NCBI GenBank assembly: GCA_025059995.1
Contig: JANXCF010000002.1
Span: 248,001 to 312,000, forward strand
Source of the DNA: Leptospiraceae bacterium
GTDB taxonomy: Bacteria > Spirochaetota > Leptospiria > Leptospirales > Leptonemataceae
DNA length: 64,000 bases
Direction: 5' to 3'
Part shown: piece by piece, positions 35,096 to 47,910 of the stretch
Layout: the number at the start of each line of letters is the position of its first letter
Numbering within the stretch: position 1 is the first letter of the stretch
Position numbers and translations under genes: made by a program
The notes under the pieces: generated by a model
Told to the model about the DNA's origin: nothing
The model's input: only the letters and a program-made list of their open reading frames with translations
The model's database searches: none

Positions 35096-36556
35096 TCATT
35101 CTCCCGGGTTTTTGAATAGAGAAGGGATGGTCTTCAAAATTATATAAATATCAAAAAGTAAGGACCAATTTTCAATGTAATAAATATCCGCTTCGACTCT
35201 TTTTTCTATAGAAGTGTCCCCTCTATAGCCTAATACTTGTGCCCAGCCTGTGATACCAGACTTTACGGAATGTCTGAGCATGTATTTTTCATATTCTTTT
35301 TTGAACTTTTTCACAAAGTGGATTCGCTCAGGACGAGGTCCAACAACTGACATATCTCCTTTTAAAACATTCCAAAACTGGGGGAGTTCGTCCAAAGAGG
35401 TTTTTCGAAGAAACCTGCCAATGGGTGTGACTCTCGGATCATTTTTTCTACCCCACGTTGTGTCTGAGGTGTTTTTATCTTGCACATACATGGTTCGAAA
35501 TTTAATTAATTTGAAAACCTTACGATCCAAACCAACACGTTCTTGAACGAAAAAGATAGGGCCTTTAGATGACAACTTTACCAAAATAGCAATCAAAATC
35601 ATCAAAGGAAAAGTCAAAATCAGCACGAACAAAGAAAACACAATATCAAAAGCTCTTTTCATGAAACGATGATAGGCATTATTCAAAGGAATGTCTCGAA
35701 GGACTAAAACAGGTAAACCGTCCATGTCTTCGATACGAACCTTGTGGGAAATTAGGTCCATTACACTAGGAACAATACGACATTCGATTCCTTCTGAATC
35801 ACAAATCTTTATCAGTTTGTGAATTTCTTTAGGATTGTTTCTCAGGATTATAATTACAGTATGAATATGATATTGGTTGAGAATGTTATGAATATCATCG
35901 ATTGTTCCAAGAATATATTTTGAGAGGTGAGGGTGGATGGGTTTATCTTTTGTTTCCTTCAGGATTCCTACGAGATTTAATCCGAAGAGTTTGTATTTTT
36001 TTATGTAATCAATGATTTTTCTGGTTTCTTTTTGTGTGCCAATGATTAAAAGGTTTTTTGTGTATTTGCCTTTTTCGATCGCATTGAGGATGTATTTTCG
36101 AAAGACATAATGTCCTGTGGAAATCAAAATCGAACTGATGATAACTGTATAAATAACCACTAACCTTGAGTAACTATGTTCTCTGTAGAAAAACAAAAAG
36201 GCTAATACAACAACTAGATTGATTCCAATCCCTCGAATAAGGGATAAAATTTCTTTATGGGGTTCGATGATGTTTTTAGGCTTGTAAACGTCCAACGCAA
36301 TAAAAACAAATACTTGGAAAAAAGAAAACACCAATCCCAGAACACTGTACGTAACTATAATAGCCAAAAAAGACTGCGGAGGAAACCACAAGCCTGGAGC
36401 AAAAAATCCTTTTGTGTCAGCAACGAAGAAAAATTTTTTTTCAGGGGAAAGAATGTAAAAGTGTAGTATTGTAGCAATGATCACAGAAAGAAAGCTCAAA
36501 AAAAAGTCCAAAAAGAAATAAATGATTTTGAAGGTCTGACGTTTTTCACGGATCAC
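35096..36556 (-). CDS. Polyprenyl glycosylphosphotransferase (WbaP/WcaJ-type undecaprenyl-phosphate sugar transferase)
   Basis: The 486-residue protein has four N-terminal membrane helices and a CoA-binding-like cytosolic region near 165-280 (KNLLIIGTQKETRKIIDYIK). A fifth helix and the bacterial sugar transferase domain follow. Diagnostic are AFDIVFSLFVLILTFPLMILIAI, KLSSKGPIFFVQERVGLDRKVFKLIKFRTMY, RKTSLDELPQFWNVLKGDMSVVGPRPE and SGITGWAQV-GYRG. It should start an O-antigen or exopolysaccharide repeat by loading a sugar phosphate on the lipid carrier. No other polysaccharide genes are adjacent. Confidence 0.93.
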   Translation of the reverse strand: MIREKRQTFKIIYFFLDFFLSFLSVIIATILHFYILSPEKKFFFVADTKGFFAPGLWFPPQSFLAIIVTYSVLGLVFSFFQVFVFIALDVYKPKNIIEPHKEILSLIRGIGINLVVVLAFLFFYREHSYSRLVVIYTVIISSILISTGHYVFRKYILNAIEKGKYTKNLLIIGTQKETRKIIDYIKKYKLFGLNLVGILKETKDKPIHPHLSKYILGTIDDIHNILNQYHIHTVIIILRNNPKEIHKLIKICDSEGIECRIVPSVMDLISHKVRIEDMDGLPVLVLRDIPLNNAYHRFMKRAFDIVFSLFVLILTFPLMILIAILVKLSSKGPIFFVQERVGLDRKVFKLIKFRTMYVQDKNTSDTTWGRKNDPRVTPIGRFLRKTSLDELPQFWNVLKGDMSVVGPRPERIHFVKKFKKEYEKYMLRHSVKSGITGWAQVLGYRGDTSIEKRVEADIYYIENWSLLFDIYIILKTIPSLFKNPGE

Positions 36557-36637
36557 AAGTTCTTTTTTTTTTGAATTCTATCTCTTGTATAGTAGAATTG
36601 CTATTGATGAAGAGTTCGTTTATTGAGTAGGTGTTTT

Positions 36638-36668
36638 GAAAAAAAATCAGGGATGTAGGATCCCTGAT
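36638..36668 (-). terminator. Intrinsic terminator of the amt-PII operon
   Basis: ATCAGGGAT and ATCCCTGAT form a perfect 9-bp stem with a 5-base loop directly at the PII stop codon. On the minus strand it is followed by a run of eight T. This is a textbook intrinsic terminator for the nitrogen operon. Confidence 0.85.
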
Positions 36669-37009
36669 CATCCAATTGCGTCCCTTCCCCTTTCACCAGT
36701 GCGAATACGAATAACTTCGATAAGATCAGTTACAAAGATTTTTCCATCACCGATGTTTCCAGTTCTTGCTCCTTCGATGATGGCTTTGATGGTTGGTTCT
36801 ACATAATCTTCATTCACTGCGATTTGTAAAATGGTCTTCTTTAACAAATTCACTTCGTGGATAACTCCACGATAAGACTCGTCGTATCCCTTTTGTTGAC
36901 CTGCACCTAAGCCGGTAGTTACCGTCATTTTTGTTACTCCAGCTTTCATCAAAGCAGCTTTTACATCTTTTAATTTATATGGTTGAATGACAGCTGTGAT
37001 TAACTTCAT
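36668..37009 (-). CDS. PII nitrogen-regulatory protein (GlnB/GlnK family) lacking Tyr-51
   Basis: The 113-residue protein aligns without gaps to E. coli GlnB through the T-loop: G-x-Q-K-G at 37-41 and YRG at 46-48, with the C-terminal IRIRTGERG segment. Position 51, the Tyr uridylylated by GlnD in proteobacteria, is His here (GVIHEV), and position 49 is Val rather than the cyanobacterial Ser. PII proteins sense ATP/ADP and 2-oxoglutarate and plug ammonium channels. It is in one operon with amt, as usual for GlnK. A strong AAAGGAG ribosome site lies upstream. Confidence 0.95.
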
Positions 37010-37028
37010 AAGCTACTCCTTTAAAAGT

Positions 37029-38378
37029 TTAATCAACTGTAAAAATTGTGAATCCATTGTAAGCTTCTTCTCCATGCTCACCGATGTCTAAGCCTTTGAG
37101 TTCTTCATCACGAGATACTCTGATTCCAATCGTATATTTTAGAATTAAAAACAAAATGAACATTGTAGCAAATGCCCATAGAGAAACCGCAAGTGAACCA
37201 ATCACTTGAACAACAAAGTCTTTCCCTTCGCCAAATAATCCAGTGGCAATTCCACCCCAAAGACCATTGAGTCCGTGGACAGGCCATGCACCAACGGGAT
37301 CATCAATTTTAAGGGCATCTAAAAGTTTCACTCCTGCGATGACAAGAAGTCCTGCAACTAACCCGATCAGTATCGCTTCTTTGTTATCGACCACATTACA
37401 ATTTGCTGTGATTGCTACTAAACCTGCTAATGCACCGTTCAAGGACATTGTCAAGTCAGGCTTACGAAAGAAAATCCAAGAACCAATCATGGAAAACACT
37501 GCACCTGTCATAGCAGCAAGAGTAGTATTGACAGCAACTAACATCACAGCATGAACATTGTCTTTCCCATAAATAGCTAATTGAGAGCCAGGATTAAAGC
37601 CATACCAACCTAACCATAGGATAAAAACTCCCAGAGTTGCAAGAGCGAGATTATGACCTGGCATGGGTTGTGGCTTTCCATCAGGATCAAACTTACCAAT
37701 TCTTGGTCCCAAAAGAATTGTAGCAGCAAGACCAGCAAAACCACCTACAGCATGAACAATGATCGAACCAGCAAAATCATGGAAACCTAATTGCGCTAAC
37801 CATCCACCACCCCATTGCCAAAAACCACTAATGGGGTAAATTAGGCCTGTGATGAATACAGAATAAATAAGATACACAGAGAACTTCAATCTACCAGCAA
37901 CAGCTCCAGAAACAATCGTTGCTGCGGTTGCTGCAAAAGCTAATTGGAAGAGAAAATTAGCTTGTGGATGGATGATAGCTCCACCTATTTCTTCTGGTGA
38001 ACTTTCTGGAATAAAAAAGCCACCAAATCCAAAGAAACCGCCTTTGAAGGCTTCTCCAGGATACATGAGGTTATACCCAAAGATAAAGAAAATCAAACCT
38101 CCTACAGAAAAATCCATTAGGTTTTTAAATAGGATATTTACAGTGTTCTTTGCTGCATTCATCCCAGATTCTACCATAGCAAAACCTGCTTGCATCCAAA
38201 TCACCAAAATCCCCGTTAAAAAAATCCAAAGGTTATCAATAGTATACGCACTATTTATGTCCATAGACGAACCAGAGTTTGTTTCTTCTCCAAAAACAGG
38301 TAAAGTGTAAACAAACAGAAAAAACAAAACTAACATAAAAATCGATTTCCCAAACCTTTTGGAATTGGAACTTCTCAT
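37029..38378 (-). CDS. amt: Ammonium transporter (Amt family)
   Basis: The 449-residue protein has a cleavable-looking N-terminal segment and about 11 membrane helices. Family landmarks include WMQAGFAMVESGM, FFIFGYNLMYPGEAF, and the twin pore histidines in DFAGSIIVHAVGGFAGL and PVHGLNGLWGG. Amt conducts ammonium into the cell and is gated by PII, encoded 19 bases downstream. A -24/-12 sigma-54 promoter lies upstream and AAAGGAGC is the ribosome site. Expression under nitrogen limitation is expected. Confidence 0.96.
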   Translation of the reverse strand: MRSSNSKRFGKSIFMLVLFFLFVYTLPVFGEETNSGSSMDINSAYTIDNLWIFLTGILVIWMQAGFAMVESGMNAAKNTVNILFKNLMDFSVGGLIFFIFGYNLMYPGEAFKGGFFGFGGFFIPESSPEEIGGAIIHPQANFLFQLAFAATAATIVSGAVAGRLKFSVYLIYSVFITGLIYPISGFWQWGGGWLAQLGFHDFAGSIIVHAVGGFAGLAATILLGPRIGKFDPDGKPQPMPGHNLALATLGVFILWLGWYGFNPGSQLAIYGKDNVHAVMLVAVNTTLAAMTGAVFSMIGSWIFFRKPDLTMSLNGALAGLVAITANCNVVDNKEAILIGLVAGLLVIAGVKLLDALKIDDPVGAWPVHGLNGLWGGIATGLFGEGKDFVVQVIGSLAVSLWAFATMFILFLILKYTIGIRVSRDEELKGLDIGEHGEEAYNGFTIFTVD

Positions 38379-38412
38379 ATAGAGCTCCTTTTAACGATTT
38401 TTCCTGATTATT

Positions 38413-38429
38413 TGCAAGATTAATACCCA
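38413..38429 (-). promoter_or_regulatory. Sigma-54 (-24/-12) promoter of amt-PII
   Basis: On the minus strand the sequence reads TGGGTATTAATCTTGCA. Taking the GG at 38427-38426 and GC at 38415-38414, there are exactly 10 bases between, with TTGCA at the -12 box. Transcription would begin near 38402, leaving a leader of about 24 bases that just holds the AAAGGAGC ribosome site. Sigma-54 control of amt-glnK operons is well established elsewhere. Confidence 0.75.
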
Positions 38430-38518
38430 CAGAAAATCCTAATTTTTTGCGAATAAGTTGTTCATTTTTTGCTAAAAATAAAGTGTATAATATGCAAATT
38501 GCTTAAAACATATACTTT

Positions 38519-38546
38519 TTTTATCCTAGGGATAAAAGATTTTATC
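38519..38546. promoter_or_regulatory. Three alternating copies of TTTTATC upstream of the cyclase-peroxidase gene
   Basis: TTTTATCC, TAG and GGATAAAA make an 8-bp inverted repeat (38519-38537), and the second arm also pairs with TTTTATC at 38540-38546 across GA. The result is three half-sites in alternating orientation, 62 bases before the cyclase start and about 90 bases upstream of the amt promoter. It looks like an operator in a divergent control region. Confidence 0.45.
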
Positions 38547-38607
38547 GTATACAATAAATGAAAAAAACTATTTACTTTAAACGAAATGAAATATTTCAGT
38601 TTTCACA

Positions 38608-40233
38608 ATGATGAATCAAGCTGAGACCAATGGAATTGAAGTTCTTTATGTTGATGAAATCTACAATAACAAAAGAGAAACAAAGATAATCAAAACCACG
38701 GCAGGAAAAACTATATTGGAAATTTCTTTAGAAAATGGGATTCCTCATATTCATGCTTGTGGGGGAAATGCGAAATGCACTACTTGTCGTGTTTGGGTGT
38801 ATGCAGGCGAAGAACATTTGAGTCCTAAAAACGAGCTCGAAGAAAGATTATCGAAAAAAAAAGGTTTTCGCAGGCAAGAACGGTTAGCTTGTCAAACCAA
38901 AGTCTATGGAAATATCAAAATCAAGAGGATTGTAAAGGATGAGGTGGATTCGGATATTGTTTTATCTTACTATAGAAGTGGAAAAGAGCAAGCTTTAGCG
39001 GTTCTATTTGCGGATATTCGGGATTTTACGAGTTTTACAGAAAGACACTTGGCTTTTGATGTGGTTTATGTTTTGAACCGTTTTTACAAAAAAATGGGGG
39101 ATGCCATTTTGAATAATGAAGGCTATTTAGACAAATTTATGGGGGATGGGATTTTAGCTCTTTTTGGTATCGATAGTTGGGATAATCAAAAAAAATGCGA
39201 GAACGCTTTTTCATCAGCCATTGAAATGTTAAAGGGCTTAGAAGAAATCAATCAGTATCTAAAAACCAACTATGACGAAGAAATTCGGATTGGGATTGGT
39301 TTACATTTTGGGACGGTAATCATAGGAGATTTGGGGCATCCGGAAAAAATGCAACTTACAGCGATTGGAGATACGATTAATTATACTTCTCGGTTAGAAA
39401 AGCTCACAAAACAAATTCAAGTTCCTGTTTTGGTATCTGAGGAATTTGCTAAGGTTCTAAATCGACCTGAAATCATAGAGAAAGAATACGTCGTTCAAAT
39501 TCGAGGAAAAACCGGAAATTACAAAGTCTATTCTGTAAATACTCAAAAGAAAACTTATGCGTCTATACGAAATTTGATAAAACAGCATTTATCCAAATCA
39601 CTGGCACCTTCTGTATTGAGGCTTGTTTTTCATGATGTTATGAGTGGGGGAAGTTTTACCTCAAACTTTCATGATGACTATAATATTGAATTGGAACTAA
39701 AAAAACCTATCAATAAAAATTTAGAATCAAGTGTGGATTTTATCAAAAAAATCAAAAATCTCATCAAAGACGAGCCATATTCTTATCGGGATATCCTTTA
39801 CTTAGCAGGAGCTGTAGCAGTAGAAATCACAAGAGGTCCTTTTATCAACATCGTTGTTCCTATGTTTTCAGATCGAGGATTTTATGAAGTTGGTATCCCT
39901 GATGAGAATGAAACTTTTGAATCATTTTATAAAAAATTCCAACAATTAAATCTCACAAAACAAGACATGGTAGCTCTAATGGGAGCTCATACCTTAGGAA
40001 AAGCAAATGGAAAACCATTCACAGAAAATCTATTTACGTTCAATAACGAGTATTTTCGAAGATTGATTTTCTATCGAGATGACCCTCAGTTGAATTCTTT
40101 GCTACCGACGGATAAAGAATTATTAAAAGACAAAGAATGTCGAAAATATGTGGAAATCTATGCTTTTTCTCAAGAACGTTTTTTTAAAGATTTTTCAGAA
40201 GCATATATCAAGTTGATTCAGTTTGGTTATTGA
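38608..40233 (+). CDS. Ferredoxin - class III nucleotide cyclase - class I heme peroxidase fusion
   Basis: The 541-residue protein has three domains. Residues 10-110 are a 2Fe-2S ferredoxin with ligands C51, C57, C60 and C95. Residues 125-310 are a class III cyclase: metal Asp D136 (FADIRDF) and D180 (DKFMGDG), substrate residues K176 and D255, and transition-state N258 and R262 in AIGDTINYTSR. Residues 325-541 match ascorbate peroxidase-type class I peroxidases: distal R338 and H342 in LRLVFHD, N369, the LAGAVAVEITRGP helix, proximal H461 in ALMGAHTLG, and D502 in LPTDKELL. The distal and proximal Trp are both Phe (F341, F471). No signal peptide or membrane helix. It likely makes cAMP in response to redox, heme or peroxide state; that is inference. 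Confidence 0.85.
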   Translation: MMNQAETNGIEVLYVDEIYNNKRETKIIKTTAGKTILEISLENGIPHIHACGGNAKCTTCRVWVYAGEEHLSPKNELEERLSKKKGFRRQERLACQTKVYGNIKIKRIVKDEVDSDIVLSYYRSGKEQALAVLFADIRDFTSFTERHLAFDVVYVLNRFYKKMGDAILNNEGYLDKFMGDGILALFGIDSWDNQKKCENAFSSAIEMLKGLEEINQYLKTNYDEEIRIGIGLHFGTVIIGDLGHPEKMQLTAIGDTINYTSRLEKLTKQIQVPVLVSEEFAKVLNRPEIIEKEYVVQIRGKTGNYKVYSVNTQKKTYASIRNLIKQHLSKSLAPSVLRLVFHDVMSGGSFTSNFHDDYNIELELKKPINKNLESSVDFIKKIKNLIKDEPYSYRDILYLAGAVAVEITRGPFINIVVPMFSDRGFYEVGIPDENETFESFYKKFQQLNLTKQDMVALMGAHTLGKANGKPFTENLFTFNNEYFRRLIFYRDDPQLNSLLPTDKELLKDKECRKYVEIYAFSQERFFKDFSEAYIKLIQFGY

Positions 40234-40246
40234 GCTTTGATTGTTA

Positions 40247-41878
40247 TCAGAACTCGAATACTACTTCTTGTGATAGTTTGCTATGAATTTCTGGTTTGTA
40301 AACATAACTTGATACTCGAAGATAATAAACCACATCAGTTTCAAACACAATAGGATACCTTAGGGGGAGCGTGTTTTTTTCTCTTGCTTTTTTTTCGTAG
40401 TAGTGATAGAGTTCGTCTTTCGTGAGGATTATGCGGATGTGATTTTTCATGTGTTGTTTTATGAAGGTGGGACGAATTTTGAGGAGTTCTTCTTCGTCTT
40501 TTGTTAAAGGAAAATCTAAAGTTTGCTTTTTTATGGGTATCCATCTGCCATTTCGATAAACTTCACTTATCGAGATCTCCGAGTGTTCTTTTTTAGTTCC
40601 AATATGGAGGTTATAGCCACCAAATTCTTCTATGATTTCTTCGGGGATTTTTTGCCACTCGATACAGACTTGATGTTCGTTTGTCAGCTCAGGGATGATT
40701 TTTACGCTTGATACTTTAGGAAGACTTTCGATGGTTGTGGTTATGATTTTGAATTCAGTGATTTTCGGTGTCGTTGTTCCTTTTGAGTCCTGCCTCATGA
40801 AGATGCGGAATTGTAAGTAGGGTCGTAATTCCCGAAAGGAAAAGGTTTTTTTATCTTTTTCTAAAGAAAAAGAAGTCCAGTTTGAATTTTCCGAAGGAGT
40901 CTCAGAAAAACGATATTCTACTTTCAAGATGGTTCCCTGTGGTTTTTCATATTGAACGAAAAATTGAACTTGAGATGTATTATGTCTTAGTTGAATCCAA
41001 GGAGAAGTTAAAAAAGAAACAGGATTTTGAATCCTACCAGACAAAAGGTCCCACTCCAAAGGTTGATAATCATAATAAGTTATAGGTGTAGTAAAAAAAC
41101 CTTTTAAAATCAGAAAATCATCGAGATAACCAATCAAATTCTTTCCAATCACAATGGGTGGGTAGTCGAGAGAAGAAAAATCCCAAACTGCGTTTTTGGG
41201 AAGTTCAATGAGTTGTTGGAGTTTTGCATTAAAAAAAACCAAGATTTGATTCTTCTCAGTGCTAAAGCTAATTAAAATGTGATTCCATTTTCTAAGAGAA
41301 AGTTTTGGGGTAATCACTTTTTGAAAACTGAAAGGAACTTCTTTTTTTAGAACCGATTGGATTTTCAAAAGGATTTCTCCATTGTGATGATAAATCCAAA
41401 ATCCTTTGATTCCTTCATTTGCGAAAGAAACCCACTCAAAAATGGTTTGGTAGGGGAATTCAAGCAAAGGAAAAAACCAAAAAGAAATTGTAAATGCTTC
41501 TGTGTTTTGATGGGGCCAAAACTTCGGATCAGTTTGAAGCTCTATGGTTTGATTGCGATTTTTAAAATAGCAAACATTTTTGATCTTAGTTTCTTTTTGG
41601 GTTTTTGTCAAAAAAACATCAGCTTTAATAAAAGGGTATTTCCCTGAATGTTCTTTGGGTTTTGTTTCTTGATTGCAGTCAAGATAAAGAATAGCGTCTT
41701 TGCGAAAATCAACAGGTTGAAGTTCGATGGTCTGTTCAATCAAGAAATCTTTTCTTTCTTCTTTAGGGATTTTTTTGAATTCTTGAATTACATCAATAGT
41801 GTCTTCTCGGAAAGATAAAACATTCCCATAAAGAGCTTGAAGACCCAAAACAATCAATACAAAACTTAAAACCCTCAC
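40247..41878 (-). CDS. Secreted LamG-like (concanavalin-A fold) surface protein
   Basis: The 543-residue protein has a signal peptide (VLSFVLIVLGLQALYG). Residues about 110-265 form a LamG/ConA-like domain, recognised by AFTISFWFFPLLEFPYQTIFEW, RKWNHILISFSTEKNQILVFFN and NLIGYLDDFLILKG. The rest has beta-sandwich segments resembling fibronectin III units near 290-375 and 385-430. Such proteins bind glycans or host or matrix proteins. It is followed in the same direction upstream by a lipoprotein-like gene 6 bases away. Confidence 0.8.
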   Translation of the reverse strand: MRVLSFVLIVLGLQALYGNVLSFREDTIDVIQEFKKIPKEERKDFLIEQTIELQPVDFRKDAILYLDCNQETKPKEHSGKYPFIKADVFLTKTQKETKIKNVCYFKNRNQTIELQTDPKFWPHQNTEAFTISFWFFPLLEFPYQTIFEWVSFANEGIKGFWIYHHNGEILLKIQSVLKKEVPFSFQKVITPKLSLRKWNHILISFSTEKNQILVFFNAKLQQLIELPKNAVWDFSSLDYPPIVIGKNLIGYLDDFLILKGFFTTPITYYDYQPLEWDLLSGRIQNPVSFLTSPWIQLRHNTSQVQFFVQYEKPQGTILKVEYRFSETPSENSNWTSFSLEKDKKTFSFRELRPYLQFRIFMRQDSKGTTTPKITEFKIITTTIESLPKVSSVKIIPELTNEHQVCIEWQKIPEEIIEEFGGYNLHIGTKKEHSEISISEVYRNGRWIPIKKQTLDFPLTKDEEELLKIRPTFIKQHMKNHIRIILTKDELYHYYEKKAREKNTLPLRYPIVFETDVVYYLRVSSYVYKPEIHSKLSQEVVFEF

Positions 41879-41884
41879 GATTTT

Positions 41885-42601
41885 TTAGTTCGGTAGTTGA
41901 GATAATTTTTTGAACCATTCTCTTTTAAACTCATCTGGTAGCCAGTAGAAGAGTTCGTATTTTAGAATACTATAGACTTCAAACCAAATTTGAATATCTT
42001 TGGTGTGTTTTTCGTATTGGGAGTTTTTATCAATCCAAAAGCTCCAGATGGCTTTTTGGTATGAGTAAACACTTTCATACAACGCCTTTTTGTTTTCTTC
42101 GAAATCTTCCAAGATTTTTTCTTTCTCGTAAAGATTTCGTTCATCAAGAAAAAGTTTTAATTCTTCTTGTAATGTGTCGTAATAAAGACGAAGGGTTTTT
42201 TCGTGGAGCTTCCACTTTTCCTGCCACTTTTGAAAATAAATTTCTTGGCATTGGTTTTGTGGAATCAATTTCTTTTTCTCTAAGATTTCTGTTTTTATGT
42301 TGGAAAAGGCATCTTTATAGAACATGACCCACTTTTCTTTTTCTTGATTCAAAAAGACATTGGGGGAAACAGGAGTTCTGGGGAAAAAACGAATAATCTC
42401 GAAGTCAATTACAGGACAGTGAATTTCATTGTTTTTGGAATTCGAATAAGACTGACAAGAGAATCCTACACTCAAAATTAAAACTAAGATTATTTTATCG
42501 ACGAGCCATGAGAATTTTCTTTTTTGTAATTCATCTAACTTTTTGGTTAATTTTTTATTTAAGAAAAAAACCAAAAAGTTTAAAAGATTAATGATAAACA
42601 T
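41885..42601 (-). CDS. Unknown lipoprotein-like protein with atypical N-terminus
   Basis: The 238-residue frame opens with a hydrophobic stretch, then a basic segment, then a second hydrophobic stretch ending in a lipobox (LVLILSVGFSC at about residues 40-49). Between these no ATG, GTG or TTG gives a shorter signal peptide, so either the long form is real or an internal TTG is used. The mature part is helical and rich in Glu, Lys, Trp and Tyr. It lies 6 bases before the LamG gene, so they are probably co-expressed. No family recognised. Confidence 0.6.
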   Translation of the reverse strand: MFIINLLNFLVFFLNKKLTKKLDELQKRKFSWLVDKIILVLILSVGFSCQSYSNSKNNEIHCPVIDFEIIRFFPRTPVSPNVFLNQEKEKWVMFYKDAFSNIKTEILEKKKLIPQNQCQEIYFQKWQEKWKLHEKTLRLYYDTLQEELKLFLDERNLYEKEKILEDFEENKKALYESVYSYQKAIWSFWIDKNSQYEKHTKDIQIWFEVYSILKYELFYWLPDEFKREWFKKLSQLPN

Positions 42602-42644
42602 TTTAAAATTTTTTTTGGTTTAGTAATTCTATGGAGGTAAAAAA

Positions 42645-44318
42645 ATGAAGTTTTTTCATAGCTTCTCTTTTCTTATTTTTTTTCTGTTTTTTTTTCATCT
42701 AATCAGTTGTAAATCTATAAATCAAAAATTAGAAACCAATGCAAACGAAAAAGAAAAAGGAAATACAAACGAAATCACTACTTTACATAGTGATGAAAAG
42801 AAAGAGTCAAAAGATTTTCCTCAAAAAGAAATTGAAACTATTATCGCAAAATTAAAAGATAAAAAAGATCAAAAGCTAAGTCTTAACGAAGTTGTGCAAA
42901 TTGTTGTTTACAATAGCAATCCAGTAAAACTCCAAAAATTGGAAATCATCAAATCAGATACAGACCTCAAAAAAGATGAAGGTAAATATGCCCCTGTATT
43001 GGATTTCAAATTCCAAAGTTATGAGCGAATCGATAAGCAACTTCCTCAATCCCTCTTTCAAGGAACAAAGATCAATCAAGATGTATATACCTTGGGAATA
43101 CAAAAACTCTTCGAGAGTGGGACATTTCTTCGACTTGAAGGTTCGGATACGAGGTTTGACTCAAATGCAGGGGAAGGTCCTGTGGCTCTAACCAACCCCT
43201 TCTTTCAGCAGCTAAGACAACCACCACTACATACAGCGGCAATAAAAGTGATATTTCAACAAGATCTTTTGAAAAATGCTTTTGGGTATTCTCAGAAACG
43301 TTTAAAGGAAATTGCCAAGAAAAAGAGTTTGGTTCAGCGAGAACAGTTGGAATTCCAACTTGCCGGTTTGATTGTAAAAACCATCGTTGATTACTGGTCC
43401 TTAGCAATTGCGGAAATTGAATTAAAAACAGCTCAAGGTCTTCTAAATAACGTCAATACGATTCGAAACATCACATACCAAAAATTGAATTTTGGATTAG
43501 CAGAACCCTTTGAGGTCAATCAATGGGAAGCTCTTTACAACCAAGCAGAAATTGCCGTCAACACTGCTAAATTAGAAAGAGACACAAAAAGAAAAGAACT
43601 ACTCAGAACCCTAAATTTGGATCCCAACATCGAAATTACGGGTTCAACCGAACTCATCAAGGAACTACCCAAAGACGTGGATGTTCAAAAGGACATCAAT
43701 TATGCTCTACAAAATCGAAGGGACTATCGAATTCTTCTTCATTCCTATGAAATTGCAAGGTTATCCAAAGAATTAGCTGACAATAATTTACTTCCAACTG
43801 TGAGGATTGGTGGACAATATGCCATAAGGGATTTTGGAAGATACTCTAGCACAGCTTGGGATCAGGTGTATTTAGGTAAATATCCCGAAAAAGCCATTGA
43901 ATTTTCGGTTCAATATCCTTTGTGGGATGAAGCAGCAAAGGTGGATTTACGAAATGCTGAAATTACTTTAAAGCAATTGGAAATCCAAAAGAAAGAATTG
44001 GAACGCCAAATTCAAGACGAAGTAGAATTGGGCTTTAAACAAATTCAGACGGCTTTTGATTCTTTGAAAAAAGCAGAACAAGCCTATCTAAAAACATTAA
44101 ATTTTTACAATGGGCTTTTGCAGGGTTATCGTCGTGGTAGATTTAACGTAACAGCGGTAAAAAACGCTTTGGATGCACTCCTACAAGCTGAGAAAGGCTA
44201 CAATCAAGCCCTAATTAGTTATAACATCACATTAGTTCGATATGATTTAACAAGAAACATTTTATTCGAAAAGTATAACATCAATCTTGACGAAATATTA
44301 TATCAATATTCAAAATAA
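42645..44318 (+). CDS. TolC-like outer membrane efflux lipoprotein
   Basis: The 557-residue protein has a lipoprotein signal (LIFFLFFFHLISC), a charged linker, then two outer-membrane efflux repeats with long amphipathic helices. Examples are SLNEVVQIVVYNSNPVKLQKLEI near 85, VDYWSLAIAEIELKTAQGLLNNV near 250, and RRGRFNVTAVKNALDALLQAEKGYNQALISY near 505. These proteins form the trimeric outer-membrane exit duct of type I secretion or RND efflux. No pump or adaptor gene is adjacent. GGAGG sits 7 bases before the ATG. Confidence 0.88.
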   Translation: MKFFHSFSFLIFFLFFFHLISCKSINQKLETNANEKEKGNTNEITTLHSDEKKESKDFPQKEIETIIAKLKDKKDQKLSLNEVVQIVVYNSNPVKLQKLEIIKSDTDLKKDEGKYAPVLDFKFQSYERIDKQLPQSLFQGTKINQDVYTLGIQKLFESGTFLRLEGSDTRFDSNAGEGPVALTNPFFQQLRQPPLHTAAIKVIFQQDLLKNAFGYSQKRLKEIAKKKSLVQREQLEFQLAGLIVKTIVDYWSLAIAEIELKTAQGLLNNVNTIRNITYQKLNFGLAEPFEVNQWEALYNQAEIAVNTAKLERDTKRKELLRTLNLDPNIEITGSTELIKELPKDVDVQKDINYALQNRRDYRILLHSYEIARLSKELADNNLLPTVRIGGQYAIRDFGRYSSTAWDQVYLGKYPEKAIEFSVQYPLWDEAAKVDLRNAEITLKQLEIQKKELERQIQDEVELGFKQIQTAFDSLKKAEQAYLKTLNFYNGLLQGYRRGRFNVTAVKNALDALLQAEKGYNQALISYNITLVRYDLTRNILFEKYNINLDEILYQYSK

Positions 44319-44976: not shown

Positions 44977-45309
44977 TTAGGCTTTTGGCACCCAGGAAGT
45001 GCACCAACCTTTTGGACTCACAGGTCCTTTGATAAGATTACATTTACCACAAGGAGAATTTCCTTCTGGCAATACGTAAAGGGCACAGTTTTCGCACAAC
45101 TTAGAAGGATCAGGAGTAAAATCCGTATATTGTAAATTTTTTCTTTGTTCTATTTCTTCTTGGGTTAAACCAGTTACATCATCACAAATTGGACCTTTTT
45201 GGGCTTGCTTTTCTTCTGGCTTACAATTAGAAATTATCATTGGTCCGAATAAAATAGTTGAACCTACAATACCGACTTGCTTTAAAAATTCTTTTCTTGT
45301 AATTTCCAT
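44977..45309 (-). CDS. High-potential iron-sulfur protein (HiPIP)-like
   Basis: From ATG 45309 (ribosome site AGGAGG) the protein has 110 residues. The N-terminus (TRKEFLKQVGIVGSTILFGPMIISNC) resembles a Tat-like or lipoprotein signal. The C-terminal 40 residues match HiPIP: C72-x2-C75, then C90 and C103 in GWCTSW, with an aromatic residue between. An extra C87 precedes C90 (PCGKCNL). HiPIPs carry a 4Fe-4S cluster and act as periplasmic electron carriers. They are best known in purple bacteria, so finding one here is unusual. Confidence 0.82.
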   Translation of the reverse strand: MEITRKEFLKQVGIVGSTILFGPMIISNCKPEEKQAQKGPICDDVTGLTQEEIEQRKNLQYTDFTPDPSKLCENCALYVLPEGNSPCGKCNLIKGPVSPKGWCTSWVPKA

Positions 45310-45628
45310 ATTTCCTCCTGAATTGACTACCATTATAACTAAACTTAAAATTTAGTTAAATAATATTCTATACTCGTATGATTATTTTAATTTATAATGA
45401 GACTCAATTTTATGAATCATCAAAACGTAAATTCTAATAAGTTATTTTGTTATATGGCTTTTCGTTTTTTTTTGTTGGATTCGTTTATAGATTATGATTG
45501 GCTTTTTCAGAAGTAAAGTCAATCTTAATTGGTCATTTGCTATTAAAGTAAAATTTTTTCTGCCAAAATGGTATGTTTTGTTAGTTTGGAATATATATTT
45601 TACATAAACTTTTTTTGGGGTTTGTTAT
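45310..45628. other. Intergenic region between divergent HiPIP and barrel-like genes
   Basis: No gene is seen in these 319 bases. The HiPIP side holds the promoter and inverted repeat at 45332-45360. The rest is AT-rich with no clear element. Confidence 0.5.
45332..45360 (-). promoter_or_regulatory. Promoter of the HiPIP gene with inverted repeat in the spacer
   Basis: A perfect TATAAT lies on the minus strand (45337-45332) with a weak TTTAAC -35 about 17 bases upstream. The spacer is covered by an 8-bp inverted repeat, TAACTAAA and TTTAGTTA with 7 bases between (45336-45358). This position suits a repressor that occludes RNA polymerase. Confidence 0.45.
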
Positions 45629-46366
45629 ATGTTTTTCAAAAATAAGTTCTATCTTCACTTGGTTGTGATTTTGATTTTAAATATCAGTATAAACACAATG
45701 TCATGGGAGTTTCAATTGTATAATTCTTACATCAATGATGTTTCTGACAGAAAAGCCACAGAATTGTTTGAAAGTGCTGTGTTTGTTCATAGTTATCAGA
45801 CCTTTTTTACCCTCAATCCAGAGAGAATCCCTTTTGCAGTCTATGCACTATCAAGAGTAGGTAAGATTAAAATTCGTGCAATCAATAATTCAGCTAATTT
45901 TTATTATGTTCTTGATTCTCAATGGGGTTTGGGGATTGGTTATGAAGAAAGTTTAGCTGAGCTCACAAATTATCCTCAATTGAATGTTGATAACTATTTT
46001 GGAACTCTTGGATATCTGCCACTTCTTAATGAAGAAAGTCAAAATTTTGTGTTTCGAATCTATGATTTCTTATCCATTCTGCGTTCTAAAACTTTTATCG
46101 AACCCTTGAGAACTTGGAACATACAAATCAAATATAACTTTCAGATTGATGAAGACGAAAACTTTTTTGTGATACGTTATGGTAGTGGAAAGCTAGCTAA
46201 TGGTTTTACTGCGAAATACGGTTTTGATGTAGGAGCGTATATACCTATCTATCCCTATTTGAGTTTTAGTTATTCTTTTTATTTTAACTATACGCAGCTA
46301 CCTGTTTTTCAAAAGCCTGAGATATTTGAAGGTGGTCTTCGACTTGGATTTGTAGTAAATCTTTAA
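45629..46366 (+). CDS. Probable outer-membrane or secreted beta-rich protein
   Basis: The 245-residue protein has a signal peptide (FYLHLVVILILNISINTMS). The mature part is dominated by alternating aromatic and polar residues, as in beta-strands: NIQIKYNFQIDEDENFFVIRYG, KYGFDVGAYIPIYPYLSFSYSFYF, and the final GGLRLGFVVNL. That suggests a small beta-barrel or a barrel-associated protein. No family is recognised. The gene ends in a four-base overlap with the convergent cyclase gene. Confidence 0.65.
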   Translation: MFFKNKFYLHLVVILILNISINTMSWEFQLYNSYINDVSDRKATELFESAVFVHSYQTFFTLNPERIPFAVYALSRVGKIKIRAINNSANFYYVLDSQWGLGIGYEESLAELTNYPQLNVDNYFGTLGYLPLLNEESQNFVFRIYDFLSILRSKTFIEPLRTWNIQIKYNFQIDEDENFFVIRYGSGKLANGFTAKYGFDVGAYIPIYPYLSFSYSFYFNYTQLPVFQKPEIFEGGLRLGFVVNL

Positions 46367-47910
46367 TAAGGATTATAATTTCTCAAAAACTTGTATTGGA
46401 TAAAATAAATTGGAAGATAGCCAGATTTCCCCTTCACTTTTAAGAAATATTTTTTCGACAAAGGAATATCTTTTTTTCTTAGGTGTTGATAGAATTCTTC
46501 ACTCATTATGATTTCATTGGGTTTACAAGCCCTTTGTAATCGACTTGTAGTGTTTACTGCATCCCCAATCAAAGTAAATTCTGTACGGAATTGGTTTCCT
46601 AAATTTCCATGAATGGCTTCTCCACAATGTAGAGCAATCTTTACTTTTAGAGGTTCAAAGTTCTCGGGCTTATGGGAAATAAAAAAATGAATCATTTCTA
46701 ATGCCGCCTTCAACGCGTCATCAGCAGTGCTAAAGTAAGCAAAGATATTATCCCCCATGAATTTATCAATGTCGCCCTCATTATCATAGATAATATCTGT
46801 CAAATGAGAAAAATAAGAATTCAAACTACTGATGATAAATTCTGGATCTTTATTTTCACTAAACTTAGTAAAATCTACTATGTCTAAAAACAAAAAGTAA
46901 TATAAGTTTCTTTCATTTGGTATTTTGAACTTTTGATAAATAGCATTTTTTACTTTTTGGAATGTTTTTCTTGGCAAATATCGAAATATCATGTTTTGAA
47001 GATTTAAATTTTCTTCTAAGATACGAACTAATTTGTCATTCATTTCACTTAGCTTTTTAAACTCAATGTTAATGCTATCTAGTAAGATTTTTTTATAAAT
47101 TATGTTTAATAAAATAGATATGAAGGATTGCAGAAAGTATTCAAACTCTTTTGTTCTTTTGGTTTGGGATTTGTAGAAAAACAATCCAATGAATTGGTTT
47201 TGATAAACAATAGGAATGAATTCAAACCCCATATTCAAAATGACATCATATAGCGTTGGCAAATTCTTTTTTATAACGTTTGAGTTTTCCAAATCTTCAA
47301 AATCGAAAATCTCAATCTGGGAGTTTAAGGGAATTTTCTTGTAATGTTCTAAAAATTCAAAATTAAAAATTTTGTAAGCTACTAATTCTAAACTGAGATC
47401 ATCCACATTCAGAGTATAGATACCATATTCTGTAATATCCGTTATACTTTCTAATTCTTTTAGAATGATTGATAGCTTTTTTTCTGTGGTGGTATAAGAT
47501 AAGTCAATCTCGAGGATTTCGTTGATGAAGCGATAAAACGTTAAATCTTGGGAACTAAATGTTAAATATTCCGTCAGATCATTTCCAAAAAAGATACTGT
47601 ATTTTTCTTTTTTATTTTCTATCATTAATCCATCAAAGTAATAGTTTTTGTTTTGATTAGTGATTTTAACTAATTGATTTTGAATCACTAAATCATCAGT
47701 TTGATGTTCTGAGATTTGTTTAACTACTTTTAAAATGTGGTTTATATTTTTTCCTAAGAGTTCATCTTTATTGATGATTTTAAATTGCTTTTGAAACACA
47801 TCATTAAAAAATACGATTTCATTCTTGTCATTTAATAAGAGAAATGACAATTTCTTTTGAAAAAATTCGTTTAAATAGTTTGTGATTTTTTCGTTGAAGT
47901 AGGTTTTCAT
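46363..47910 (-). CDS. Class III adenylate/guanylate cyclase with PAS-like and GAF-like sensor domains
   Basis: The 515-residue protein has a PAS-like domain at about 20-115 (LLLNDKNEIVFFNDVFQKQF), a GAF-like domain at about 130-275, a coiled-coil linker near 280-310, and the catalytic domain at 330-510. Metal-binding D343 (FLDIVDFTKF) and D387 (DKFMGDN) are present, with FTLIGDAVNTTSRLQ carrying the substrate Asp and the catalytic Asn/Arg. It is soluble. It would make cAMP or cGMP in response to an unknown ligand. Confidence 0.92.
   Translation of the reverse strand: MKTYFNEKITNYLNEFFQKKLSFLLLNDKNEIVFFNDVFQKQFKIINKDELLGKNINHILKVVKQISEHQTDDLVIQNQLVKITNQNKNYYFDGLMIENKKEKYSIFFGNDLTEYLTFSSQDLTFYRFINEILEIDLSYTTTEKKLSIILKELESITDITEYGIYTLNVDDLSLELVAYKIFNFEFLEHYKKIPLNSQIEIFDFEDLENSNVIKKNLPTLYDVILNMGFEFIPIVYQNQFIGLFFYKSQTKRTKEFEYFLQSFISILLNIIYKKILLDSINIEFKKLSEMNDKLVRILEENLNLQNMIFRYLPRKTFQKVKNAIYQKFKIPNERNLYYFLFLDIVDFTKFSENKDPEFIISSLNSYFSHLTDIIYDNEGDIDKFMGDNIFAYFSTADDALKAALEMIHFFISHKPENFEPLKVKIALHCGEAIHGNLGNQFRTEFTLIGDAVNTTSRLQRACKPNEIIMSEEFYQHLRKKDIPLSKKYFLKVKGKSGYLPIYFIQYKFLRNYNPY

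What the first reader, a model, noticed from the sequence alone, without database searches (positions are those of the whole stretch)
38608..40233. Ferredoxin, nucleotide cyclase and ascorbate-peroxidase-like domains in one protein
Seen: 2Fe-2S ligands C51, C57, C60, C95; a complete class III cyclase core (D136, D180, N258, R262); then a C-terminal region with distal R338/H342, proximal H461, and D502 in the order and context of class I heme peroxidases. Known: ferredoxin-cyclase pairs occur in bacteria, and class I peroxidases are normally separate enzymes. Inference: a cAMP-producing sensor gated by redox state, heme or H2O2. The double Trp to Phe change and missing ascorbate-contact Arg suggest sensing rather than bulk peroxide removal.
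Basis: partly seen in the sequence, partly recalled or inferred. Interest (0 to 1): 0.95.

Follow-up and report, generated by a model that had tools for sequence, protein, structure and literature searches.

The report
Peroxidase-ferredoxin switch for making cAMP

Summary

It is not a one-off: 77 other protein clusters share the architecture. Over these 78 rows the four Cys are intact in 78, the cyclase core in 76, heme-pocket R/H/H/D in 67. The Fer2-cyclase core carries other heads in relatives: globin, flavin reductase, Rieske, YceI, or a membrane domain as in S. meliloti CyaC, a redox-gated cyclase.

Most likely mechanism (inferred, untested): peroxide oxidises the heme, the heme draws electrons from the cis [2Fe-2S] cluster, and the cluster's state sets cyclase activity. 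Against it: 7 of 9 named Leptospira rows lack the heme ligand but keep ferredoxin and cyclase. Verdict: new variant of a known kind.

The parts
38608..40233 (+). whole gene, 541 aa plus stop: ferredoxin - class III cyclase - class I peroxidase
38680..38904 (+). Fer2 [2Fe-2S] ferredoxin domain, residues 25-99
   Evidence: Pfam 39.5 bits; PDB E. coli ferredoxin 1i7h E 7e-10
38758..38787 (+). cluster ligands C51 (38758), C57 (38776), C60 (38785)
   Evidence: Cys in 78 of 78 rows
38890..38892 (+). fourth cluster ligand C95
   Evidence: 78 of 78 rows
38905..38985 (+). linker 100-126 between ferredoxin and cyclase; R107, V109, D111, D114 nearly invariant, candidate transducer (role inferred)
   Evidence: 90% or more of 67 rows; R107 97 and D114 94 of 98 non-membrane-head rows
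38986..39537 (+). class III cyclase domain, residues 127-310
39013..39015 (+). metal-binding D136
   Evidence: 76 of 78 rows
39133..39147 (+). K176 and metal-binding D180
   Evidence: 73 and 77 of 78 rows
39370..39393 (+). D255, N258, R262
   Evidence: 74, 77 and 72 (6 more Lys) of 78 rows
39562..40230 (+). class I (APX-R-type) peroxidase domain, residues 319-541
39619..39633 (+). distal R338, F341, H342
   Evidence: R 68, F 57 (Y 19, W 2), H 76 of 78 rows
39988..39990 (+). proximal heme ligand H461
   Evidence: 70 of 78 rows; 7 Arg, 1 Lys
40018..40020 (+). F471, at the place of APX Trp179 / CcP Trp191
   Evidence: F 64, never Trp in 78 rows
40111..40113 (+). D502, partner of the proximal His
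   Evidence: 78 of 78 rows

Best explanation
[quoted passage not shown] Steps: (1) shown: the three domains, their residues and their predicted folds. (2) Predicted from residues: heme b bound by H461; R338 and H342 cleave H2O2 to give compound I; no ascorbate site and no Trp radical site. (3) Inferred: the two electrons come one at a time from the cis ferredoxin, whose nearest named relatives are ISC/adrenodoxin-type ferredoxins (that type's habit of reducing heme proteins is recalled). (4) Inferred by analogy with S. [quoted passage not shown] (5) Inferred: cAMP acts on cNMP-binding proteins, which the genome has. A cellular reductase would reset the cluster. The sign of the effect (oxidised = on) is the least certain step.
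Against: No cofactor, activity or inter-domain distance was measured; the model carries no heme or cluster. Eight rows (7 named Leptospira, 1 unnamed in their clade) have Arg or Lys for the proximal His yet keep ferredoxin and cyclase, so in them the protein must work without this heme chemistry. P0035, P0041 and P0071 have changed distal residues. P0014, and in one metal Asp P0013, have a degenerate cyclase with an intact peroxidase. One head, YceI, is a lipid-binding family (recalled), not a redox protein. Phe at the Trp179/191 place removes the known electron entry of CcP (recalled). No PerR-like box lies in the upstream gap (21 matches in the window, 22.8 expected), and no neighbour shared with the window was seen in seven relatives' loci.
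Confidence: 0.42

Rival explanations
1. Ligand or heme sensor: the peroxidase domain binds heme or a heme ligand and signals by shape change to the cyclase, without electron transfer to the ferredoxin; the ferredoxin is a second, separate redox input.
For: Globin heads on the same core are usually ligand sensors (recalled). Phe at the CcP Trp191 place is poor for protein-to-heme electron transfer (recalled).
Against: Full peroxide-cleaving set R38/H42/H163/D208 kept in 67 of 78 rows, more than ligand binding needs; flavoprotein and Rieske heads bind no gas.
Confidence: 0.2
2. Ferredoxin-dependent peroxidase: the main job is to remove H2O2 with ferredoxin electrons; the cyclase is a by-signal or is regulated for another purpose.
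For: No catalase or second PF00141 match in this genome; APX-R is catalytic with unknown donor (PMC7825652, passages); P0014 keeps peroxidase and ferredoxin while its cyclase is degenerate.
Against: Cyclase core intact in 76 of 78 rows; a 1-Cys-Prx-type protein is present for removal; 8 rows lost the heme ligand but not the cyclase.
Confidence: 0.17
3. Redox sensing by the ferredoxin alone: the cluster reads the cell's electron supply and the peroxidase domain is a structural lid or dimer part whose heme chemistry is dispensable.
For: Headless Fer2-cyclase proteins, 36 of the 120 listed hits; heme-ligand loss in 8 rows with intact ferredoxin and cyclase; lower peroxidase-domain identity in the Leptospira clade.
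Against: In the 66 rows outside that clade the pocket is intact in 64, which a mere lid would not need.
Confidence: 0.13
4. Loose fusion: three domains joined for co-expression without functional coupling.
For: No coupling was shown here.
Against: Fixed order in 78 of 78 rows chosen for it, short linkers, nearly invariant Fer2-cyclase linker residues, CyaC precedent.
Confidence: 0.08

Closest known systems
Sinorhizobium meliloti CyaC (redox-regulated class III adenylate cyclase)
   Same: A heme-containing head, a [2Fe-2S] cluster and a class III cyclase in one chain; activity can be raised after oxidation by quinones (PMC10463352, passages). Rhizobial proteins of this layout match the family query at 32-36% identity over the Fer2-cyclase core.
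   Different: CyaC's head is a six-helix membrane domain with two hemes B that reads quinones; here the head is a soluble C-terminal class I peroxidase.
Plant APX-R (ascorbate peroxidase-related, 'APX6')
   Same: 35% identity (81 of 234 aligned positions) to a celery protein; R38, F41, H42, H163, no R172, F at 179 and the loop deletion shared.
   Different: Stand-alone enzyme of green plants and algae, no ferredoxin or cyclase. Common origin is not settled (AU tests p 0.274 and 0.298).
Cytosolic ascorbate peroxidase and yeast cytochrome c peroxidase
   Different: W41 and W179 of APX (W191 of CcP) are Phe and the R172 loop is gone.
Spirulina platensis CyaC, soluble adenylyl cyclase domain (1wc1)
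   Different: Not ferredoxin-linked as far as I recall; unrelated in name only to S. meliloti CyaC.

Membership tests
Class III nucleotide cyclase | two metal-binding Asp and the transition-state Asn/Arg | tested here: met
   D136, D180, N258, R262; their roles are recalled
Class III nucleotide cyclase | cyclase fold | tested here: met
Class III nucleotide cyclase | adenine-specifying Lys and Asp | tested here: met
   K176, D255; the meaning of the pair is recalled
Class III nucleotide cyclase | cAMP synthesis by a homodimer | not testable with these tools
   needs an assay
Fer2 [2Fe-2S] domain | four Cys ligands and Pfam cut-off | tested here: met
   39.5 bits against 21; four Cys
ISC-type [2Fe-2S] ferredoxin (TIGR02007) | NCBIfam equivalog cut-off 132.1 bits | tested here: not met
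   47 bits: a relative, not the ISC ferredoxin itself
Class I heme peroxidase (PF00141) | distal Arg and His, proximal His and Asp, Pfam cut-off, fold | tested here: met
Class I heme peroxidase (PF00141) | heme binding and peroxidase turnover | not testable with these tools
   needs purified protein
Ascorbate peroxidase (APX) | Trp41 and ascorbate-binding Arg172 (definition in PMC8069737) | tested here: not met
   F341; loop with R172 deleted
APX-R | R38, F41, H42, H163, position 172 not Arg (definition in PMC8069737) | tested here: met
   R338, F341, H342, H461, deletion
APX-R | common descent with green-lineage APX-R apart from APX | tested here: inconclusive
   branch parting APX+KatG from fusion+APX-R 99/97, but APX+APX-R together not rejected, p 0.274
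KatG catalase-peroxidase | two tandem peroxidase domains, about 730 aa | tested here: not met
   one peroxidase domain at the end of a 541-aa fusion
CyaC-type redox-gated cyclase | [2Fe-2S] domain joined to a class III cyclase | tested here: met
CyaC-type redox-gated cyclase | six-helix diheme-b membrane domain | tested here: not met
   the protein begins with Fer2; the model shows no long N-terminal helices
CyaC-type redox-gated cyclase | cyclase rate set by redox state | not testable with these tools
   needs an assay

The most novel reading that the evidence does not exclude
The Fer2-cyclase core is a general redox-to-cAMP converter with plug-in heads, each head (peroxidase, globin, flavin reductase, Rieske, diheme b) loading or draining the same cluster; in the peroxidase version hydrogen peroxide is turned over catalytically, so one enzyme both consumes H2O2 with ferredoxin electrons and converts the flux into a cAMP signal. 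It would be the first peroxidase-driven nucleotide cyclase that I know of.
Probability: 0.33. Interest if true: 0.88.

Novelty: new variant of a known kind. Interest (0 to 1): 0.7.

Why it matters
Bacteria usually sense peroxide with transcription factors such as OxyR and PerR (recalled). A peroxidase wired through an iron-sulfur cluster to a cyclase would be a direct chemical route from H2O2 to a second messenger, and the exchange of heads on one core makes the coupling rule testable by comparing heads. APX-R has no known natural electron donor; a version fused to a ferredoxin offers a concrete candidate. The loss of the heme ligand in 7 of 9 named Leptospira rows, with ferredoxin and cyclase kept, is a natural experiment on what the domain does beyond heme chemistry.

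Tried and rejected
One-off or assembly artefact: rejected, 77 other protein clusters.

KatG remnant: rejected, a single peroxidase domain and another place in the tree. Pycsar defence cyclase: PADLOC PycC models match the cyclase region (best E 1.2e-24), as expected for a class III cyclase; no effector model was run on the neighbours, so this is set aside, not excluded.

PerR control: no box in the upstream gap; the window count is at chance. Promoter scan at chance (7 found, 7.6 expected); two terminator-like sites, 1.1 expected (sd 1.2), both inside the gene on the other strand. No Rfam match at gathering score in 36000-43000. Neighbours: among seven relatives' loci none repeats the window's flanks; two same-genus ones (G062, G179) resemble each other (by eye). 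No plasmid record matches the peroxidase domain; five phage records match only part of the protein, the cyclase region. G+C over the gene does not stand out.

Evolution of APX-R from a bacterial fusion: the tree hints at it, AU tests do not decide; only three cytosolic APX and five KatG rows, no CcP or class II/III rows. Ferredoxin folds are not among the 50 rows shown; that is no evidence against one.

The first residue count used pea APX numbering off by one for the peroxidase columns; corrected. Literature: eight searches showed no paper on the fusion; two returned nothing, the others listed all or only the top part of their hits. The original CyaC paper (10.1111/mmi.14251) is not held, so CyaC rests on passages of PMC10463352.

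Full report

THE FAMILY. The first protein search kept 1001 proteins (of 7996 scored candidates) and listed 120; 72 of the 120, the window's own entry included, have Fer2, cyclase and peroxidase together. With six more I examined 78 rows, the window among them; P0015, a partial ORF, was left out. Residues: four Cys 78 of 78; D136 76, K176 73, D180 77, D255 74, N258 77, R262 72 with 6 Lys. Peroxidase: R338 68, H342 76, N369 68, H461 70, D502 78; the R172 loop is absent in all 78 and no row has Trp at the 179 place. R38, H42, H163 and D208 are all intact in 67 of 78; 65 of 78 are intact in both cores. In whole genomes of the phylum, 44 of 392 sampled have any PF00141 match; 10 of these hold the fusion, all in the window's class, where they are 10 of 48 genomes (the same-genus copy in G179 is interrupted by stops). 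The other matches are mostly two-domain, KatG-sized frames plus some fragments. One fusion protein is named from outside the group (P0067, a Tepidisphaeraceae MAG).

WHAT KIND OF PEROXIDASE. PMC8069737 (passages) defines APX by R38, W41, H42, H163 and R172, and APX-R by the same with F41 and no R172. The window domain is APX-R by that rule, as are 54 of 78 rows in all; of the other 13 intact rows 12 have Tyr and 1 Trp at 41. The domain alone found three proteins: a 214-aa ORF of unknown context, the split same-genus ORF, and a celery 'APX6', 35% identical over the domain, which shares the loop deletion and F179. APx-R of Arabidopsis, made in E. coli and reconstituted with hemin, reduces H2O2 with pyrogallol and guaiacol, not ascorbate; its natural donor is unknown (PMC7825652, passages). 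In a 97-row tree (70 of 72 fusions, 19 APX-R, 3 APX, 5 KatG) APX and KatG part from fusions and APX-R at 99/97, but a tree with APX and APX-R together is not rejected (p 0.274), nor is a fusion-only clade (p 0.298). Whether APX-R arose in green algae, as published, or shares a bacterial root is open. One search is not neutral evidence, since I had put the celery protein in its query.

A CORE WITH CHANGEABLE HEADS. Among the 120 listed hits the Fer2-cyclase core ends in globin (5), YceI (4), a NAD-binding flavoprotein (1), Rieske (1) or no further Pfam domain (36); Pfam confirms one of each head. The window's own genome has a paralog, Fer2 plus a degenerate cyclase (no Pfam match) plus YceI. 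Of the 80 genome-contig loci returned I opened 23; 17 of the 23 have a multi-helix membrane stretch before Fer2 (read by eye), in Rhizobium, Reyranella, Microvirga, Methylobacterium, Ferrovibrio and others; Pfam names no family for it in the two tested. A 105-row core tree (quick method, 41 of 102 inner branches weakly supported; 15 close, partial or duplicate peroxidase rows, 13 of 36 headless rows and 10 of 17 membrane-head rows left out) needs 13 changes of head, headless counted as a state, where 6 is the least possible. S. meliloti CyaC has a six-helix domain with two hemes B and a [2Fe-2S] cluster; [quoted passage not shown] That is the nearest worked example and the basis for my sign of the effect.

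WHAT ARGUES AGAINST. The nine fusion rows named Leptospira sit, with three unnamed rows, in one clade of 12. Seven rows of it (L. noguchii, weilii twice, yasudae, gomenensis, sp. WS92.C1 and unnamed P0061) have Arg for the proximal His and Lys for the distal Arg; L. broomii has Lys and Thr there, in another part of the clade. P0071 keeps the proximal His but has Leu and Asn distally; P0063, P0069 and P0072 keep R, H and H. Seven rows' core is as similar to rows outside the clade (0.506) as those are to each other (0.508), while the peroxidase domain is less so (0.299 against 0.376 in 802 pairs matched on core identity; 5% of those pairs lie under 0.294). The five other rows of the clade, three of them with the pocket intact, have drifted as much (0.308), so the drift does not follow ligand loss alone. 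There the domain must do something else, or nothing. Outside the clade P0035 and P0041 have a changed distal residue, and in P0014 the cyclase is degenerate with the peroxidase intact. No row lacks the ferredoxin ligands, though the rows were chosen by having a Fer2 match, and core rows partly by the Cys motif itself.

SETTING. The genome (95.8% complete) holds 18 class III cyclase matches, 11 cNMP-binding matches, ferrochelatase, COX1, one 1-Cys-Prx C-terminal match, one FNR-type match and five Fer2 matches, this gene and its paralog among them, but no catalase match and no second PF00141 match. So heme, oxygen use, cAMP targets and a possible reductase are plausible. The gene stands alone beside divergent amtB-glnK; flanks differ in the seven relatives' loci viewed.

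IN PRINT. Eight searches showed no description of the fusion in what they listed. A review of Leptospira oxidant defences has no hit for ascorbate, heme peroxidase or adenylate (PMC10294975, term search and passages), a peroxide transcriptome paper no hit for cyclase, ascorbate or ferredoxin (PMC7567364, term search), and a peroxidase phylogeny no hit for Leptospira or cyclase (PMC4232752, passages). Databases already carry the protein under names such as 'peroxidase family protein'. Light-dependent nucleotide synthesis controls motility in L. kobayashii (PMC9043183, listing and passages), so cAMP is a live signal in the group.

VERDICT. Observation confirmed; interpretation partly supported. 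By membership: a class III cyclase, a Fer2 protein and an APX-R-type peroxidase by residues; not APX, not KatG, not CyaC. In working it most resembles CyaC with a peroxidase in place of the quinone-reading head. New variant of a known kind; interest 0.7.

Noticed in passing
L032 4373-5947 (own genome, contig C10): Paralog with Fer2, a cyclase region too degenerate for Pfam, and a YceI domain; the copies of three same-genus genomes look less degenerate.
   Followed up: partly
rows P0056, P0058-P0061, P0064, P0068, P0074 (7 named Leptospira, 1 unnamed): Proximal heme His replaced by Arg (7) or Lys (1) while ferredoxin and cyclase residues are kept: a peroxidase-fold domain apparently without its heme ligand.
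   Followed up: partly
window 46363-47910 (-): A second class III cyclase (515 aa) about six kilobases downstream; no other Pfam domain found.
   Followed up: no
window 44977-45333 (-): Small HiPIP-type high-potential iron-sulfur protein with a Tat-like start (read by eye).
   Followed up: no
L039 5455-6946 (same-genus genome G179): The fusion is split into a 106-aa ferredoxin ORF and a 346-aa cyclase-peroxidase ORF.
   Followed up: no
window 40247-41878 (-): Convergent neighbour with a concanavalin/LamG-like lectin fold; a weak Pfam hit (25.7 bits) to a receptor-binding lectin domain of a neurotoxin family most likely reflects only that fold.
   Followed up: no
window 39562-40230 and plant APX-R: The bacterial peroxidase domain shares the APX-R signature and loop deletion, which bears on the published green-algal origin of APX-R; tests were inconclusive.
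   Followed up: partly
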